NCBI GenBank assembly: GCA_018261955.1
Contig: JAGTRK010000003.1
Location: 248,001-312,000, forward strand
DNA: 64,000 nucleotides
Source of the DNA: Burkholderiaceae bacterium
GTDB lineage: Bacteria > Pseudomonadota > Gammaproteobacteria > Burkholderiales > Burkholderiaceae
Direction: 5' to 3'
Position 1 is the first letter of the stretch. Every line of letters starts with the position of its first letter. Positions 57,384 through 64,000 of the stretch are shown in pieces. Both the position numbers and the translations under genes were made by a program. The notes beneath the pieces are model-generated. The model did not search any database. It was not told the DNA's origin and saw nothing but the letters and a program-made list of their open reading frames with translations.

Positions 57384-57415
57384 TTTTTAAGTCTTGGAAA
57401 TCAAAGACTTAAAAA
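57384..57415. promoter_or_regulatory. Perfect 12-bp inverted repeat upstream of carA
   Basis: TTTTTAAGTCTT-ggaaatca-AAGACTTAAAAA, spaced 8 bases, lies directly after a TTGACA box (57377-57382) and about 80 bases before the carA start. A repressor operator over a second promoter is the simplest reading; no matching minus-10 is clear. Confidence 0.45.
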
Positions 57416-57495
57416 TCGCCGAAATACTTTTAATGTTGTTATGCAAAGGTTTCTATCAAGCCATATCATTGCAAAAAACAGTTAAGGAGCGTCTT

Positions 57496-58641
57496 GTGTT
57501 ACCCATATTTTCTTCCCAATTTTCCAAAGCGATTTTGGCACTGGCCGATGGCACGGTGTTTCAAGGTTATGGCATCGGTGCAACGGGGCATGTGGTTGCC
57601 GAAGTGGTGTTCAACACCGCCATGACAGGTTATCAAGAAATCCTCACCGATCCTTCATACACAGGGCAGATGGTGACGCTCACCTATCCGCATATTGGTA
57701 ATGTCGGCGTGAACAGCGAGGATGTGGAAGCGGATAAAATCTATGCGGCGGGCTTGATTATCAAAGACTTACCCGCGATTGTGAGCAATTTTCGCGCCGA
57801 GCAATCTTTGTCTGACTATTTGAAAGCCAACAACATCGTAGCGATTGCGGGCATTGATACCCGCGCTTTGACTCGAGTCTTACGTGAAAAAGGTGCGCAG
57901 GGTGCTTGTATTTTGGTGGGCGACGATGTCGAGCAAGCCAAAACCTTGGCCAAAGGCTTTGGTGGTATGGCGGGGCAAGATTTGGCAAAAGTCGTTAGTT
58001 GCACCACTCCATATCAATGGACAGAAACTGAGTGGCAACTCGGTACAGGTTTTGGCACGCAAACCCAACCCAAATTTAAAGTGGTGGCGTATGACTTTGG
58101 CGTCAAGCGCAACATCTTGCGTATGTTGGCTGAGCGCGGTTGTGACATCACGGTGGTGCCTGCACAAACGCCAGCATCCGAAGTGTTGGCCATGAATCCT
58201 GATGGCGTATTTTTAAGCAATGGCCCTGGCGACCCTGAACCCTGCGATTATGCAATTGCGGCAACACGTGCGTTTCTCGATAAAGGTTTGCCAGTGTTTG
58301 GCATTTGTTTGGGACATCAAATTTTGGCTTTGGCCGCAGGGGCAAAAACCCTGAAAATGAAATTTGGTCACCACGGCGCGAACCACCCTGTGAAAGATTT
58401 GGATACGGGGCGCGTGTCGATTACTTCACAAAACCACGGCTTTGCGGCGGATGAAAAAACCTTGCCCGCGAATGTACGCGTGACGCATGTGTCTTTGTTT
58501 GATGGTTCTCTGCAAGGCATCACGTTTACCGACAAACCCGCATTCTCGTTCCAAGGTCACCCAGAAGCCTCACCGGGTCCGCACGATATTGCGTATTTGT
58601 TTGACCGTTTTGTTGAAAACATGACTGCGAGTAAAAACTAA
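57496..58641 (+). CDS. carA: Carbamoyl-phosphate synthase small (glutaminase) subunit
   Basis: A 381-residue subunit that releases ammonia from glutamine and passes it to CarB. The C-terminal class I glutamine amidotransferase domain has [16 protein letters not shown] with the nucleophile Cys, [11 protein letters not shown] (oxyanion loop) and [13 protein letters not shown] with the His-x-Glu. The N-terminal region [19 protein letters not shown] is typical. GTG at 57496 with AAGGAG 6 bases upstream is preferred over a TTG at 57394, which would lie within the 12-bp dyad. carB is 4.2 kb downstream. Confidence 0.96.
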
Positions 58642-59336
58642 TGTTTGGCATTACCGATATAACCACCTATGTCATCGGCGTGATTGCTGTGATATTGCTG
58701 CCTGGGCCGAACTCAATGTACACGCTCGCAGTGGCTGCGGGGCAGGGTGTGCGTCGCGGTTACAGCGCGGCATTGGGCGTGTTTGTTGGCGATACAGTAT
58801 TGATGGTGCTTGCGACCTTGGGTGCGGCGACCGTGCTGAAAACCGCACCACAATTGTTTTTAATCTTAAAAACCATCGGTGGTGTGTACTTGGGTTATCT
58901 TGGTATCAAGATGCTGATGGGCGCGTACGGTATTTGGCAAAACCGCGCGAATATTTCGGCTCAAGCCTTGTTGGAGCAGAACACCACTATCGATGGGCAA
59001 CATGCGAGCACATTGGTCAACGAATCCGCCAGCGGCTCACCATTCGTCAAAGCCCTGTTGGTCAGCCTGATTAACCCAAAAGCGATCTTGTTTCTCGTGT
59101 CGTTCTTTGTGAACTTTGTTCGCCCCGATGCTTCGCATCCGTATTTGGCGTTCACAATTTTGGCCTTGATATTGCAGTTTTTTAGTTTCGTGTATTTGTC
59201 GGTGCTAATTTTTGCAGGCGCGCGCCTGGCAAATGTATTTCGTTCACGACCACTTTGGATGGTTACAGGCACGGGAGCAGTTGGCGCATTGTTTGTCGGC
59301 TTTGGCGCGAAATTGGCCACCGCGACTTTGGAGTAA
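58641..59336 (+). CDS. LysE-family amino acid exporter
   Basis: A 231-residue inner-membrane protein with about six helices. It has the LysE/RhtB signature LLPGPNSMYTLAVAAGQGVRRG and GVYLGYLGIKMLMGA, and SLINPKAILFLVSFF in the second half. Members export amino acids such as leucine, threonine or lysine. It overlaps the carA stop by one base (TAATG). A carA-exporter-carB order is common in Burkholderiales; here other genes separate it from carB. Confidence 0.92.
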   Translation: MFGITDITTYVIGVIAVILLPGPNSMYTLAVAAGQGVRRGYSAALGVFVGDTVLMVLATLGAATVLKTAPQLFLILKTIGGVYLGYLGIKMLMGAYGIWQNRANISAQALLEQNTTIDGQHASTLVNESASGSPFVKALLVSLINPKAILFLVSFFVNFVRPDASHPYLAFTILALILQFFSFVYLSVLIFAGARLANVFRSRPLWMVTGTGAVGALFVGFGAKLATATLE

Positions 59337-59339
59337 AAC

Positions 59340-60062
59340 ATGACGCAACTTTCTGTCAACATCAATAAAATAGCCCTGATTCGCAACTCACGCGGGCGCA
59401 ACTTTCCCGATGTGGTTGCATTTTCAGAGCAATTTTTAAACCTTGGTGCGCATGGCATTACCCTGCATCCTCGCCCTGACCAGCGTCATGCGCGCTACTC
59501 GGATGCGCACGAACTGAAAGCATTGTGCGACAAGCACGGCAAAGAATTAAACATCGAAGGCAATCCAACCGCAGAGTTTCTCGATGTGGTCAAAGCGGTT
59601 CGACCAGCGCAATGCACCCTCGTGCCCGATGACCCGAACCAAGTCACCTCGGATCATGGTTGGGATTTGGTGCGCGATGCCGAGTTTTTACGCAGTGTGT
59701 GTGCGGATTTGAATGCGCACGGCATCCGCGTGAGTTTGTTTGTCGATTATGACAACCCCGATATTGCACTGGCAAAAGAATTGGGTGCGCAGCGGGTGGA
59801 GTTGTACACCGAACCCTATGCAGAAACCTACGGCACGGTGGAAAATAACGCGGTATGGGCGCAGTTTGCCCGCGCGGCAAAAATTGCTCAAGACGCTGGT
59901 TTGGGCGTGAATGCTGGGCATGATTTGAATTTAGAGAATTTAGCGCGTTTTATCGAGATACCGAATATTTTGGAAGTATCGATTGGACACGCCTTGGTGG
60001 TGGAATGCTTGCAAATGGGGATGGAGAAAACCTTGCAAGCCTATATGGACATTCTCAAATAA
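59340..60062 (+). CDS. pdxJ: Pyridoxine 5'-phosphate synthase
   Basis: A 240-residue TIM-barrel enzyme that closes the pyridine ring from amino-acetone phosphate and deoxyxylulose phosphate, the last step of the DXP-dependent vitamin B6 pathway. Signatures: LSVNINKIALIRNSRG, GITLHPRPDQRHARYSD, NIEGNPTAEFLDVV and the C-terminal GLGVNAGHDLNLENL and VSIGHALVVECLQMG. It starts 3 bases after the exporter and is followed directly by the EamA gene. Confidence 0.96.
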   Translation: MTQLSVNINKIALIRNSRGRNFPDVVAFSEQFLNLGAHGITLHPRPDQRHARYSDAHELKALCDKHGKELNIEGNPTAEFLDVVKAVRPAQCTLVPDDPNQVTSDHGWDLVRDAEFLRSVCADLNAHGIRVSLFVDYDNPDIALAKELGAQRVELYTEPYAETYGTVENNAVWAQFARAAKIAQDAGLGVNAGHDLNLENLARFIEIPNILEVSIGHALVVECLQMGMEKTLQAYMDILK

Positions 60063-60977
60063 ATGGCGAGAAAATTAGCCTACGCGCAAATGACCGCTTC
60101 CATGCTGCTTATCGGCAGTATGTTTGTGGTGAGCAAGGTCATCGTGGCGCACATCCCTGTGATGACGGCTTCGTTTTTTCGGCAGTTTTTGGCGTGTTTG
60201 GCTTTGGTCGCAGTTTTGCTCTGGCGCAATCGCTATGACGAAAAAGTGGTGTGTCCACCGATTAACAAGCGCGATCAATGGATTTTGTTTATCCAAATTT
60301 TTTGCGGCATATTTTTGTTTAGTTTGCTACTGTTGTGGGGCGTACAGCGCACCAACGCGATTGACGCGAGCATCATCACCAGTGCGACACCGTTGTCGAT
60401 GATGTTGTTTGGTGTGGTGTTTTTGAGCGAGCGCATGACGTGGCTACGAGGTGTGGCTCTTATCTGTGCCTTGGCAGGTGCGTTGGTGATGAATGTTTAT
60501 GGTGCGCAGGCACATGCGGGCACCACAAACAATGCATCCAATGTATGGTTGGGTAATCTACTGATTGCAGGTGCGGTGCTGTTTGAGGGCGTGTTTTTTG
60601 GGGCGCAAAAATTATTGAGCCGTCCTTTGCCGAGTATTTGGCTGATGGTGATATTGACCGCTGGGGCAAGTGTGTTGTTCACGCCGTTTGCGCTGTATGA
60701 TGCGCTGATCTTTGATTTTAGCCATGTGCCGCTGTATGTCTGGGGCTTGGTGGTGTACACAGGGGTGTGCATCACGGCTTTCGGGGTATTGCTGATGCAC
60801 GCGGGCATCAAACAAGTGCCGAATAGCAGCGCATCGGTGTTTACAGCCTTGATGCCCGTGAGTGGTGTGGTGCTGTCGGTGCTGTTGTTGAACGAATCGT
60901 TTCAATGGTATCACCTGTTGGGTATGATTTTGGTGATGATGGGGATGGGGTTGATTGTGGGGGAAAAAGAAAAATGA
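60063..60977 (+). CDS. EamA-family (DMT superfamily) exporter
   Basis: A 304-residue transporter with ten predicted helices in two five-helix EamA repeats (about 1-145 and 155-300). Typical words are QRTNAIDASIITSATPLSMMLFG and GVLLMHAGIKQVPNSSASVFTALMPVSG. The substrate is unknown. It begins immediately after the pdxJ stop. Its own stop TGA is within the ATGA that starts the restriction endonuclease. Confidence 0.92.
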   Translation: MARKLAYAQMTASMLLIGSMFVVSKVIVAHIPVMTASFFRQFLACLALVAVLLWRNRYDEKVVCPPINKRDQWILFIQIFCGIFLFSLLLLWGVQRTNAIDASIITSATPLSMMLFGVVFLSERMTWLRGVALICALAGALVMNVYGAQAHAGTTNNASNVWLGNLLIAGAVLFEGVFFGAQKLLSRPLPSIWLMVILTAGASVLFTPFALYDALIFDFSHVPLYVWGLVVYTGVCITAFGVLLMHAGIKQVPNSSASVFTALMPVSGVVLSVLLLNESFQWYHLLGMILVMMGMGLIVGEKEK

Positions 60978-61717
60978 AAAAATACCAATTAGGCTTTATT
61001 TCGGATAAAGCGATTTTTGAACATGTTAAATCAACGGTGTTGAAATACCGCTTCGTCATCGACTTGGAAACGTTTAATTCAAATATTGTTGACCCAATTA
61101 AATTAACTTTTGACGCAAAAGTTTACAACAAGACGATTGAGCAAGTTATTCAAGATGAAGTGACGCGTCAATTAGATAAATCAAATAACAACCATATCGG
61201 ATACTTTCACCAAAATTTATTTGGCTTGCTGAATGCGGATTGGACAGTACCTAGCAAAGGTTTTGATGTTGTCAATGAGAAACAAAAAATATTTGTGGAA
61301 ATGAAAAATAAACATAACACCATGAATTCAAGTTCATCGCAAAAAACCTACACGCGAATGCAAGCTAAATTGCTGAATACGCCAAAAGCACAATGTTTTT
61401 TAGTTGAGGTCATCGCGAAGAAAAGTCAAAATCAACCGTGGATTGTTAGTTTAGACGGTGAACGCGTAGTCAATGATAAAATACGTCGAGTGTCCATCGA
61501 TAAATTTTATGAATTTATTACGGGTGATGGGCTCGCTTTCCATAAATTATGTACGCAACTTCCTGTCATCATTGATGATGTGATTGAGCATTTAGGACGT
61601 GATAATTTGATAAAAAACACTGTGTTATCTGAACTGTGCGCTGTTTCTTCGCAAGATATATTGAAAAGAATTTATAAACTATCGTTCAAAGACTATCAAG
61701 GATTTCGAGATGAATGA
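60974..61717 (+). CDS. Type II restriction endonuclease, Eco47II/Sau96I family
   Basis: A 247-residue protein: KKYQLGFISDKAIFEHVKST at the start, the central stretch NHIGYFHQNLFGL and KGFDVVN, then a PD-(D/E)xK-like centre IFVEMKNKHNTMNSSSSQKT (about 111-130). This is the pattern of the Eco47II family, which cuts GGNCC-type sites; the exact specificity is inferred. The gene is clearly AT-richer than its neighbours, pointing to horizontal gain. It overlaps the EamA gene by ATGA and the methylase gene by 8 bases. No control protein gene is present. Confidence 0.85.
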   Translation: MKKYQLGFISDKAIFEHVKSTVLKYRFVIDLETFNSNIVDPIKLTFDAKVYNKTIEQVIQDEVTRQLDKSNNNHIGYFHQNLFGLLNADWTVPSKGFDVVNEKQKIFVEMKNKHNTMNSSSSQKTYTRMQAKLLNTPKAQCFLVEVIAKKSQNQPWIVSLDGERVVNDKIRRVSIDKFYEFITGDGLAFHKLCTQLPVIIDDVIEHLGRDNLIKNTVLSELCAVSSQDILKRIYKLSFKDYQGFRDE

Positions 61718-62807
61718 TTTGTTTGCCAATCAACTTTGGGATGACGAGTTACAGGTTAGTCCCAAACGTACTTACCGCTCGGTAGAGTTGTTTGCGGGTG
61801 CGGGTGGTTTGGCTTTGGGCTTGGAAAAAGCAGGGTTTGAAGCAGTGTTGCTCAATGAATTAGATAAATCTGCGAGTGCGACATTGCGTACTAATCGTCC
61901 CAATTGGAATGTGGTTGAAGGCAGTATCAGTGATATAGATTTTAGTCCGTACCATGGACAAGTGGATTTTTTGTCGGGTGGCTTTCCCTGTCAGGCTTTT
62001 TCATATGCTGGGAAAAGTCGTGGGTTTGAGGACACGCGTGGGACGATGTTTTTTGAGTTTGCCCGTGCGATTTCAGAAATTTCACCTTTGGTATTTATGG
62101 GGGAAAATGTCCGTGGATTGACCACACATGACAATGGTAAAACCTTGAAAGTGATTAAGCAAACGATTGATGAATTGGGTTATTACTTGGTTGAACCACG
62201 GGTTTTGAACGCCATGAATTATTTTGTCCCTCAGAAAAGAGAACGAATTTTTTTGATTGGTATTCGTAAAGACCTTGTTGATAGTGGCAAATTCGTTTGG
62301 CCCGCACCGTTTAGTAGAGTGTTGACGATGAAAGACGCGCTTAAAAAAGGGATACTATACGATTGTGATGTGCCTAATTCGCATGGGCAAGTTTATCCGC
62401 AACGCAAAAAAGAAATTTTAGATTTAGTACCTGCGGGTGGATATTGGCGTGATTTGCCTGATGTCATTCAGCGTGAGTACATGAAAGGCAGTTATTTTTT
62501 GGGGGGTGGGAAAACAGGAATGGCTCGTAGAATATCGTGGGATGAGCCATGCTTGACACTGACTTGTGCGCCAGCACAAAACCAAACAGAGCGATGCCAC
62601 CCAGAACAGACACGTCCATTAACCGTGAGAGAGTATGCTCGAATTCAAACTTTCCCCGATGATTGGGTATTTGAAGGTTCAATGACGCAACAATACAAAC
62701 AAATAGGAAATGCTGTGCCTGTAAATTTAGGTTTTGCGATGGGGCGTGCGCTAATCCGATTGATGAACCAGATTGATGCAAAAGCGCATTTAAAAATTGC
62801 CGTATAA
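61710..62807 (+). CDS. DNA (cytosine-5)-methyltransferase of the R-M pair
   Basis: A 365-residue C5 methyltransferase. Motifs in order: I ELFAGAGGLALGLEKAGF (about 27-44), IV GGFPCQAFSYAGKSRGF with the catalytic Cys, VI MGENVRG, VIII QKRERIFLIGIRKDL, a short target-recognition region (about 220-285) and X QQYKQIGNAVPVNLGFAMG. It protects the host from the adjacent endonuclease, so it should methylate a GGNCC-type site. The endonuclease stop lies inside its 5' end. carB starts 41 bases later and may be read from the same transcript. Confidence 0.95.
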   Translation: MNDLFANQLWDDELQVSPKRTYRSVELFAGAGGLALGLEKAGFEAVLLNELDKSASATLRTNRPNWNVVEGSISDIDFSPYHGQVDFLSGGFPCQAFSYAGKSRGFEDTRGTMFFEFARAISEISPLVFMGENVRGLTTHDNGKTLKVIKQTIDELGYYLVEPRVLNAMNYFVPQKRERIFLIGIRKDLVDSGKFVWPAPFSRVLTMKDALKKGILYDCDVPNSHGQVYPQRKKEILDLVPAGGYWRDLPDVIQREYMKGSYFLGGGKTGMARRISWDEPCLTLTCAPAQNQTERCHPEQTRPLTVREYARIQTFPDDWVFEGSMTQQYKQIGNAVPVNLGFAMGRALIRLMNQIDAKAHLKIAV

Positions 62808-62848
62808 ATTAGATATTAATTGAATTGAAAAAAGTTGGAGTATAAAAA

Positions 62849-64000
62849 ATGCCAAAACGTGAAGACCTAAAATCCATCCTAATCATCGGTGCGGGGCCGA
62901 TTATTATTGGGCAGGCGTGTGAGTTTGACTATTCTGGGGCGCAGGCGTGTAAAGCCTTGCGTGAAGAAGGCTACCGCGTGATTTTGGTGAACTCCAATCC
63001 TGCGACGATTATGACTGACCCAGAGATGGCGGATGCGACGTATATCGAGCCGATTACTTGGGAAGTGGTCGAAAAAATCATTGAGAAAGAGAAGCCCGAT
63101 GCGATTTTGCCGACCATGGGTGGACAAACGGCTCTGAACTGCGCCTTGGATTTGTTCCATCAAGGTGTATTGGCAAAGCACAATGTGCAATTGATTGGCG
63201 CGTCACCCGAGGCGATTGACAAGGCGGAAGATCGCATGAAGTTCAAGGACGCGATGACGAAAATCGGCTTGGGCAGTGCGTTATCGGGCATTGCCCATAG
63301 CATGGAGGAGGCTTTTGCGGTGCACGCGATGATTGCCAAAGCGAACAACAATTCAGGCTACCCAACCGTAATTCGCCCATCGTTTACCATGGGCGGTACG
63401 GGTGGCGGGATTGCGTATAACCGCGAAGAGTTTGAGGAAATTTGCCGCCGTGGCTTGGATTTATCACCCACCAATGAGTTGTTGATTGAGGAGTCTTTGC
63501 TCGGCTGGAAAGAGTACGAAATGGAAGTGGTGCGCGACAAGAAAGACAACTGCATCATTGTCTGCTCGATTGAAAACTTAGACCCAATGGGCGTGCACAC
63601 AGGCGACTCGATTACGGTTGCGCCAGCGCAAACCTTGACGGATAAAGAATATCAAATCATGCGCAATGCGTCACTGGCGGTATTGCGAGAGATTGGTGTC
63701 GATACTGGCGGGTCTAATGTGCAGTTTTCGGTCAACCCCGATACAGGGCGCATGATTGTGATTGAGATGAATCCGCGTGTGTCGCGCTCATCGGCATTGG
63801 CATCGAAAGCGACGGGTTTTCCGATTGCGAAAATCGCTGCAAAACTGGCGATTGGCTACACTTTGGATGAGTTGAAAAATGACATTACGGGTGGACAAAC
63901 ACCCGCATCGTTCGAGCCATCGATTGACTACGTGGTGACCAAGATTCCACGCTTTGCGTTTGAAAAATTCCGCGAAGCTGATCCGCACCTAACCACGCAG
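62849..64000 (+). CDS. carB: Carbamoyl-phosphate synthase large subunit, N-terminal part
   Basis: The first 384 residues, open to the window edge; the full protein is about 1,075. It shows the first ATP-grasp carboxyphosphate domain: [20 protein letters not shown] at about 11-30, [44 protein letters not shown] and [19 protein letters not shown]. It uses ammonia from CarA to make carbamoyl phosphate. The ATG follows TTGGAG. It lies downstream of the R-M genes rather than next to carA. Confidence 0.97.

What the first reader, a model, noticed from the sequence alone, without database searches (positions are those of the whole stretch)
60974..62807. Type II restriction-modification pair lodged inside the car gene cluster and coupled to an exporter
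Seen: the endonuclease ATG overlaps the EamA stop (ATGA at 60974-60977), the methylase start overlaps the endonuclease by 8 bases, and carB starts 41 bases after the methylase. The endonuclease gene is AT-richer than its surroundings. A selfish module read through from biosynthetic genes, with carB downstream, would be hard to lose by deletion, and endonuclease translation would depend on the exporter gene. No control protein is visible, so balance between the two enzymes may rest on this coupling.
Basis: partly seen in the sequence, partly recalled or inferred. Interest (0 to 1): 0.6.

Follow-up and report, generated by a model that had tools for sequence, protein, structure and literature searches.

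The report
Restriction-modification pair in variable car pocket
A freshwater bacterium carries a DNA-cutting defence enzyme and its protecting partner inside the cluster that makes carbamoyl phosphate, at a spot where closely related species carry different foreign genes or nothing, and the protecting enzyme has lost a control-like domain that its relatives have.

Summary
"One selfish module, hard to lose" is only partly right. The genome belongs to the Hydromonas/Formosimonas group (Burkholderiaceae). In one congener (about 86% DNA identity) carB follows EamA after 26 bp; in the other the same junction holds other cargo (unknown 302-aa gene plus a MntA/HepT-like toxin-antitoxin pair). In the group 7 of 9 loci have >300 bp of extra DNA directly before carB, against 1 of 40 and 1 of 63 in wider sets. 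So this is a variable pocket, like the Neisseria "minimal mobile elements", now holding an RM system. With no promoter or terminator standing out, host read-through plus translational coupling most likely sets the enzyme ratio (inferred). GGNCC specificity is likely (family; fold match to EcoO109I) but untested.

The parts
57394..58641 (+). carA, carbamoyl-phosphate synthase small subunit (listed from a TTG; true start probably further in)
   Evidence: Pfam/NCBIfam; homology to congeners begins at residue 20
58641..59336 (+). LysE/LeuE-type exporter, the gene found between carA and carB in many Burkholderiaceae
59340..60062 (+). pdxJ, pyridoxine 5'-phosphate synthase; found here in the three genomes of this genus, as a truncated remnant in L106, not in the other loci surveyed
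60063..60977 (+). EamA-family transporter; last few codons differ between the three congeners
60959..62817 (+). extent of the DNA without counterpart in the empty-site congener G001 (27 bp between the aligned blocks there)
   Evidence: blastn collinearity breaks
60974..60977 (+). ATGA overlap of EamA stop and endonuclease start
   Evidence: sequence
60974..61717 (+). Eco47II-family type II restriction endonuclease, 247 aa
   Evidence: PF09553 E=4e-83; AlphaFold model closest to EcoO109I
61265..61306 (+). candidate PD-(D/E)xK catalytic residues D98 ... E109-x-K111, invariant in 10 aligned homologues
61710..61717 (+). 8-bp overlap endonuclease/methylase
61710..62807 (+). C5-cytosine DNA methylase, 365 aa, motifs I, IV, VI, VIII, IX, X present; lacks the N-terminal HTH-like region of its relatives
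61710..61784 (+). shortened N-terminus: 25 residues before motif ELFAGAGG, versus 73-83 in the seven other endonuclease-first pairs examined
62808..62848 (+). carB leader with GGAG ribosome-binding site; its right part (AATTGAATT...GTTGGAGTATAAAAAATG) is largely shared in the group whatever the cargo (the G089 leader differs)
62849..64000 (+). carB, carbamoyl-phosphate synthase large subunit (runs off the window)

Best explanation
The junction just before carB is a variable cargo pocket of the Hydromonas/Formosimonas group: small foreign cassettes sit between two conserved genes, most likely exchanged by homologous recombination through the flanks (mechanism inferred). In this genome the pocket holds an intact-looking Eco47II-family RM system (probably GGNCC). 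The pair has no control gene, and its methylase has lost the N-terminal HTH-like region that its closest relatives carry. Endonuclease and methylase are therefore most likely made from car-cluster read-through mRNA, with their ratio set by translation: endonuclease start overlapping the EamA stop, methylase start overlapping the endonuclease stop, each with an SD-like site. Shown: gene content, overlaps, empty and alternative sites, methylase shortening and its place in the tree. Inferred: read-through, loss of autoregulation, GGNCC specificity, recombination route.
For: Same junction in the genus: G000 RM; G001 empty; G002 302-aa CxxC protein + MntA-like + HepT-like genes. Sister genus: DUF3667 + 210-aa gene, 223-aa, 323-aa, 104-aa ORFs, one empty; L106 pdxJ remnant. 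Gap >300 bp before carB in 7 of 9 group loci vs 1 of 40 and 1 of 63 elsewhere. In G000, G002, G023, G066 and G099 the cargo genes, taken as the longest ORFs, run in carB's direction (9 of 9) and most are AT-rich (32-43% GC; the MntA-like gene 47%). Methylase: 7 of 7 other endonuclease-first pairs examined have 73-83 residues before motif I, the window 25; the window row falls on the extension-bearing side of the tree (18 of 25 rows, support 98/96; 12-row subset 92/88). Motifs intact in both enzymes. Fold match of the endonuclease to EcoO109I, E=3e-4, TM 0.60, rmsd 7.1. No + strand consensus promoter or terminator inside the insert. DprA found in 3 of 3 and ComEC in 2 of 3 genomes of the genus.
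Against: Only three genomes of the genus are held, each a different species, so within-species exchange is not seen. G000 and G001 differ by five insertions >500 bp over 73 kb aligned, the pocket included, besides rearrangement breakpoints, so the pocket is one of several variable places. Consensus promoter scans are weak evidence of absence. DprA and ComEC were also found over cut-off in 10 of 14 control genomes, Escherichia coli among them, so they do not show competence. The HTH label is weak by Pfam: above the curated cut-off in 2 of 6 relatives scanned (L207, L213), weak in three, absent in L060. In the tree no starred set of up to half the rows holds the window row; the 92/88 fork is below the tool's 95/80 mark. 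GGNCC is depleted in PF09553-free G001 too (observed/expected 0.41, against 0.31 in G000), so site avoidance is no clear mark of this RM. In a published Eco47II-homologue system the GGNCC motif was predicted 'without certainty' and its methylation score was just above the cut-off (passages of PMC10305163).
Confidence: 0.7

Rival explanations
1. One reading: a single selfish RM module lodged in an essential operon and kept there because deletion would hurt carB, with the enzyme balance resting on coupling to EamA.
For: Tight co-directional packing; no control gene; PF09553 in only 2 of 61 relatives, this genome included.
Against: Non-RM cargo at the same junction in congener and sister-genus genomes, and empty sites with carB in place, show that cargo there is gained and lost between species; the endonuclease has its own SD-like site.
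Confidence: 0.12
2. A domesticated or decaying RM: the methylase lost its regulatory region because the system is degenerating or only the methylase is still used.
For: The HTH-like region is missing; in another genome (L219) the HTH-coding part of a related methylase is cut off by an in-frame stop, so decay of this region happens.
Against: Both reading frames intact; catalytic and methylase motifs conserved; the shortening is clean and the methylase start still overlaps the endonuclease stop as in L061.
Confidence: 0.15
3. Ordinary random insertion: the place before carB is no more variable than other gene junctions in this group.
For: Five >500 bp insertion differences in 73 kb aligned between G000 and G001, the pocket being one of them; in G002 the junction after carB is also about 0.9 kb longer.
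Against: Six different cargoes, a pdxJ remnant and two empty sites at one junction in nine loci, against carA-LysE gaps of at most about 375 bp in the same loci.
Confidence: 0.13

Closest known systems
Minimal mobile elements of Neisseria, notably the pheS/pheT locus
   Same: Region between two conserved genes holding different whole-gene cassettes in different strains; [quoted passage not shown]
   Different: Other bacterial group and locus; here compared between species, not strains; exchange by transformation and homologous recombination is not shown.
Eco47II-family RM systems (PF09553 + C5 methylase; GGNCC)
   Same: Endonuclease family and partner methylase type; endonuclease-first tight pairs occur in plasmid, viral-collection and genome loci.
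   Different: Methylase lacks the N-terminal HTH-like region found in the seven other endonuclease-first pairs examined; placed inside a metabolic gene cluster.
SsoII/Ecl18kI-type methylases with an N-terminal transcription-regulating region, and M.NlaX which lacks it
   Same: M.SsoII residues 1-71 regulate transcription in its RM system; M.NlaX lacks these N-terminal residues (passages of PMC3978073). Same contrast as relatives versus window copy.
   Different: Different RM family; a regulatory role of the N-terminal part is not tested for Eco47II-type methylases here.
Listeria 'immigration control region'
   Same: Chromosomal hotspot with diverse RM systems between fixed genes (start of abstract only, PMC10059834).
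   Different: Different group and locus; flanks named lmo0301 and lmo0305, not looked at further.

Membership tests
Eco47II-family type II RM system | Endonuclease matches PF09553 over its full length | tested here: met
   278 bits, profile 1-201 of 202
Eco47II-family type II RM system | Adjacent C5-cytosine methylase with intact motifs | tested here: met
   PF00145; motifs I, IV, VI, VIII, IX, X by pattern
Eco47II-family type II RM system | Recognition and modification of GGNCC | tested here: inconclusive
   Fold match to EcoO109I (its site RGGNCCY is recalled); GGNCC depletion not specific to this genome; no methylation data
Minimal mobile element (MME) | Different whole-gene cassettes between the same two conserved genes | tested here: met
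   EamA-carB in three congeners; LysE-carB in the sister genus; between species, not strains
Minimal mobile element (MME) | No integrase, transposase or terminal repeats in the cassette | tested here: met
   For the window cargo: two genes only, only short imperfect repeats
Minimal mobile element (MME) | Incorporated solely by homologous recombination in the flanks | not testable with these tools
   Needs population data; competence genes found are not specific
HTH-methylase autoregulated RM (SsoII type) | N-terminal DNA-binding region on the methylase | tested here: not met
   Only 25 residues before motif I; no HTH match
C-protein controlled RM | Small HTH control gene next to the pair | tested here: not met
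   Between EamA and carB the + strand ORFs of 30 aa or more are the two enzymes and three of 36, 55 and 37 aa inside them; a distant regulator is not excluded

The most novel reading that the evidence does not exclude
An RM system whose methylase-fused regulator was discarded after it settled in a metabolic operon: the host operon's read-through and overlapping translation replace dedicated control, and the car cluster of this group serves as a general cassette-expression site in which promoterless defence or toxin-antitoxin cargo is expressed in carB's orientation.
Probability: 0.3. Interest if true: 0.6.

Novelty: new member of a known kind. Interest (0 to 1): 0.42.

Why it matters
How a potentially lethal enzyme pair is kept in balance after transfer to a new host is often answered by a dedicated regulator. 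Here a natural experiment is available: relatives with the regulator-like region and an operon-lodged copy without it, plus congeners with the empty site or other cargo. It also gives a marker locus (the gap before carB) at which to look for new defence or toxin-antitoxin cargo in Hydromonas-like freshwater bacteria.

Tried and rejected
GGNCC avoidance as a sign of long RM residence: 92 observed vs 293 expected in 204 kb of G000 (0.31), 88 vs 216.5 in 140 kb of G001, which has no PF09553 match (0.41); CCNGG is similarly low in both (0.40, 0.43). Not discriminating.

Flanking repeats as insertion scars: only short, two-copy, imperfect repeats; rejected. A dispersed 21-bp repeat lies on the carB side of other cargo (G002, G066, G099) but is absent from the window.

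Phage origin: no tblastn match of the endonuclease in 50,697 phage records at E 1e-5; 12 loci in the viral-contig collection and 10 plasmid records, none above 60% identity, so no near donor was found. No PDB sequence match for the endonuclease. No Rfam match.

Neisseria carA-carB variable intervening sequence: recalled from an older paper, not found in the library (the passages of PMC6245113 did not help), so not used as evidence. Paper searches: no row listed was a paper on this locus (one search lists 15 of 206, 15 of 130, 8 of 14; one search found none); the three Hydromonas/Formosimonas papers were not opened.

G080's 104-aa cargo ORF overlaps a 106-aa ORF on the other strand, so its direction is unsure and it is left out of the co-orientation count. 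Not examined for the methylase N-terminus: the Bacteroides ovatus pair (L206, methylase across the record start) and the Treponema record. G109, a further sister-genus genome, was not fetched; it may be the genome of L106.

Full report
What is there. Within a run of closely packed + strand genes, carA (57394-58641), a LysE/LeuE-type exporter, pdxJ and an EamA transporter (stop 60977), lie an endonuclease (60974-61717) and a C5 methylase (61710-62807), then carB (from 62849). Pfam gives RE_Eco47II and DNA_methylase with E-values of 4e-83 and 6e-86. The pair is AT-richer than the seven neighbouring genes compared (endonuclease 34%, methylase 43%, others 49-51%). Both look intact: the endonuclease has the invariant D98 ... 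E109-x-K111 set in ten aligned homologues and its AlphaFold model (mean pLDDT 84) is closest in the PDB to EcoO109I (E=3e-4, TM 0.60, rmsd 7.1, 8% identity), an enzyme whose site, as I recall, contains GGNCC; the methylase has motifs I, IV, VI, VIII, IX and X.

Where it comes from. PF09553 is rare: 2 of 61 relatives, 5 of 300 genomes of the order; the protein itself finds 6 of 369 genomes of the class. These counts include the window's own genome. The nearest endonucleases found are 54-60% identical, so no near donor was seen.

The empty and the other site. In congener G001, at 86% DNA identity to G000 over the blocks aligned, blastn runs collinear to window 60958 and resumes at 62818, with 27 bp between the blocks in G001; carB starts 26 bp after the EamA stop there. 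In congener G002 the same junction holds about 2 kb of other cargo: a 302-aa AT-rich gene (32% GC) whose ATG also overlaps the EamA stop by 8 bp, with a weak CxxC zinc-ribbon match, then MntA-like and HepT-like toxin-antitoxin genes (the NCBIfam scores are below the curated cut-offs, Pfam PF01909 and PF01934 above). In the sister genus, between LysE and carB: a DUF3667 gene plus a 210-aa ORF (G023), a 223-aa ORF (G099), a 323-aa ORF (G066), a 104-aa ORF of unsure strand (G080), nothing (G089); L106 has a pdxJ remnant of 84 residues. Measured from the last conserved gene, more than 300 bp lie before carB in 7 of 9 loci of this group. The two control sets may share a few genomes. The control exceptions are L092 (a 216-aa ORF, phosphoglycerate-mutase-like by eye) and L171 (Burkholderia ubonensis, 2.4 kb).

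How special is the junction? Between G000 and G001 I count five insertion differences above 500 bp in 73 kb aligned, the pocket included, besides rearrangement breakpoints, so turnover elsewhere is real. But three of three congeners differ here, and the carA-LysE gap in the same group never exceeds about 375 bp. In G002 the junction after carB is also about 0.9 kb longer than in the other two. A 21-bp dispersed repeat, present in 2-30 copies per genome in eight genomes (up to one mismatch), lies within 50 bp of carB in G002, G066 and G099 but not in the window. In the five inserts with clear gene direction all nine genes, taken as the longest ORFs, run with carB, a one-sided chance of 0.03 for five independent inserts.

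The missing regulator. Seven other endonuclease-first pairs were examined (L060, L061, L194-L197, L207): all seven methylases have 73-83 residues before the ELFAGxGG motif, the window copy 25. The extension reads as HTH-like (for example 'ADIMSVSKRTVESWKKNGKV' in L060); Pfam calls it above its curated cut-off in two of six relatives scanned (L207, L213), weakly in three, not in L060. Of the eight methylase-first pairs whose methylase start could be read (L198-L202, L204, L205, L209) plus L221, three (L198, L204, L205) have a different, XRE-like extension and the others a short one or none. In a maximum-likelihood tree of 25 methylases the window row falls on the extension-bearing side (18 rows, support 98/96; 12-row subset 92/88, below the tool's mark for a firm fork; midpoint root), so the simplest history is loss on the window's branch. 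M.SsoII is a published case where such an N-terminal region regulates transcription, and M.NlaX one that lacks it (passages of PMC3978073). For the Eco47II group the regulatory role is inferred.

How it most likely works. With no + strand consensus promoter or terminator inside the insert (a weak test), I infer read-through from the car cluster. Translation: endonuclease start overlaps the EamA stop, with an SD-like GGGGGA (best predicted pairing -8.4 kcal/mol, the strongest of eight genes compared); methylase start overlaps the endonuclease stop with AAGGA (-5.2); carB has GGAG (-5.9).

Verdict. What is added is the pocket, which matches the description of a minimal mobile element (passages of PMC3898611 and PMC3082526) except that only species, not strains, could be compared and the recombination route is untested, and the loss of the methylase's regulator-like region in the operon-lodged copy.

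Noticed in passing
L035:4043-4951: Unknown 302-aa AT-rich protein with a C-terminal CxxC zinc-ribbon-like end, first gene of the G002 cargo, start overlapping the EamA stop; no PADLOC match and only weak Pfam/NCBIfam ones. Possible defence gene.
   Followed up: partly
L035:5102-5768: MntA-like nucleotidyltransferase and HepT-like genes, second part of the G002 cargo.
   Followed up: partly
L064 / L103, before carB: 323-aa, 32% GC protein with hydrophobic C-terminal stretches (by eye) as the cargo in Hydromonas sp. HYPMRC01; no Pfam or PADLOC match at E 0.01.
   Followed up: no
L035:5940-5960, L062:9051-9071, L064:724-744: Dispersed 21-bp repeat GCGGGTCRAGCCCRCAATGAC within 50 bp of carB in three species with different cargo; 2-30 copies per genome. 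A copy also lies near LysE/pdxJ in G001 and G002.
   Followed up: partly
L106:8687-9145: Truncated pdxJ (84 of 240 residues) between LysE and carB, a remnant suggesting that pdxJ once sat here more widely.
   Followed up: no
L219, upstream of the methylase match: Related methylase whose HTH-coding part is separated from it by an in-frame stop.
   Followed up: no
L171:8640-11023: About 2.4 kb insert between LysE and carB in Burkholderia ubonensis LMG 20358, the one exception among the 63 comparison loci.
   Followed up: no
window 51402: Collinearity with G001 begins only here; the first 51 kb of the window have no match longer than 150 bp in the 140 kb of the G001 contig compared.
   Followed up: no
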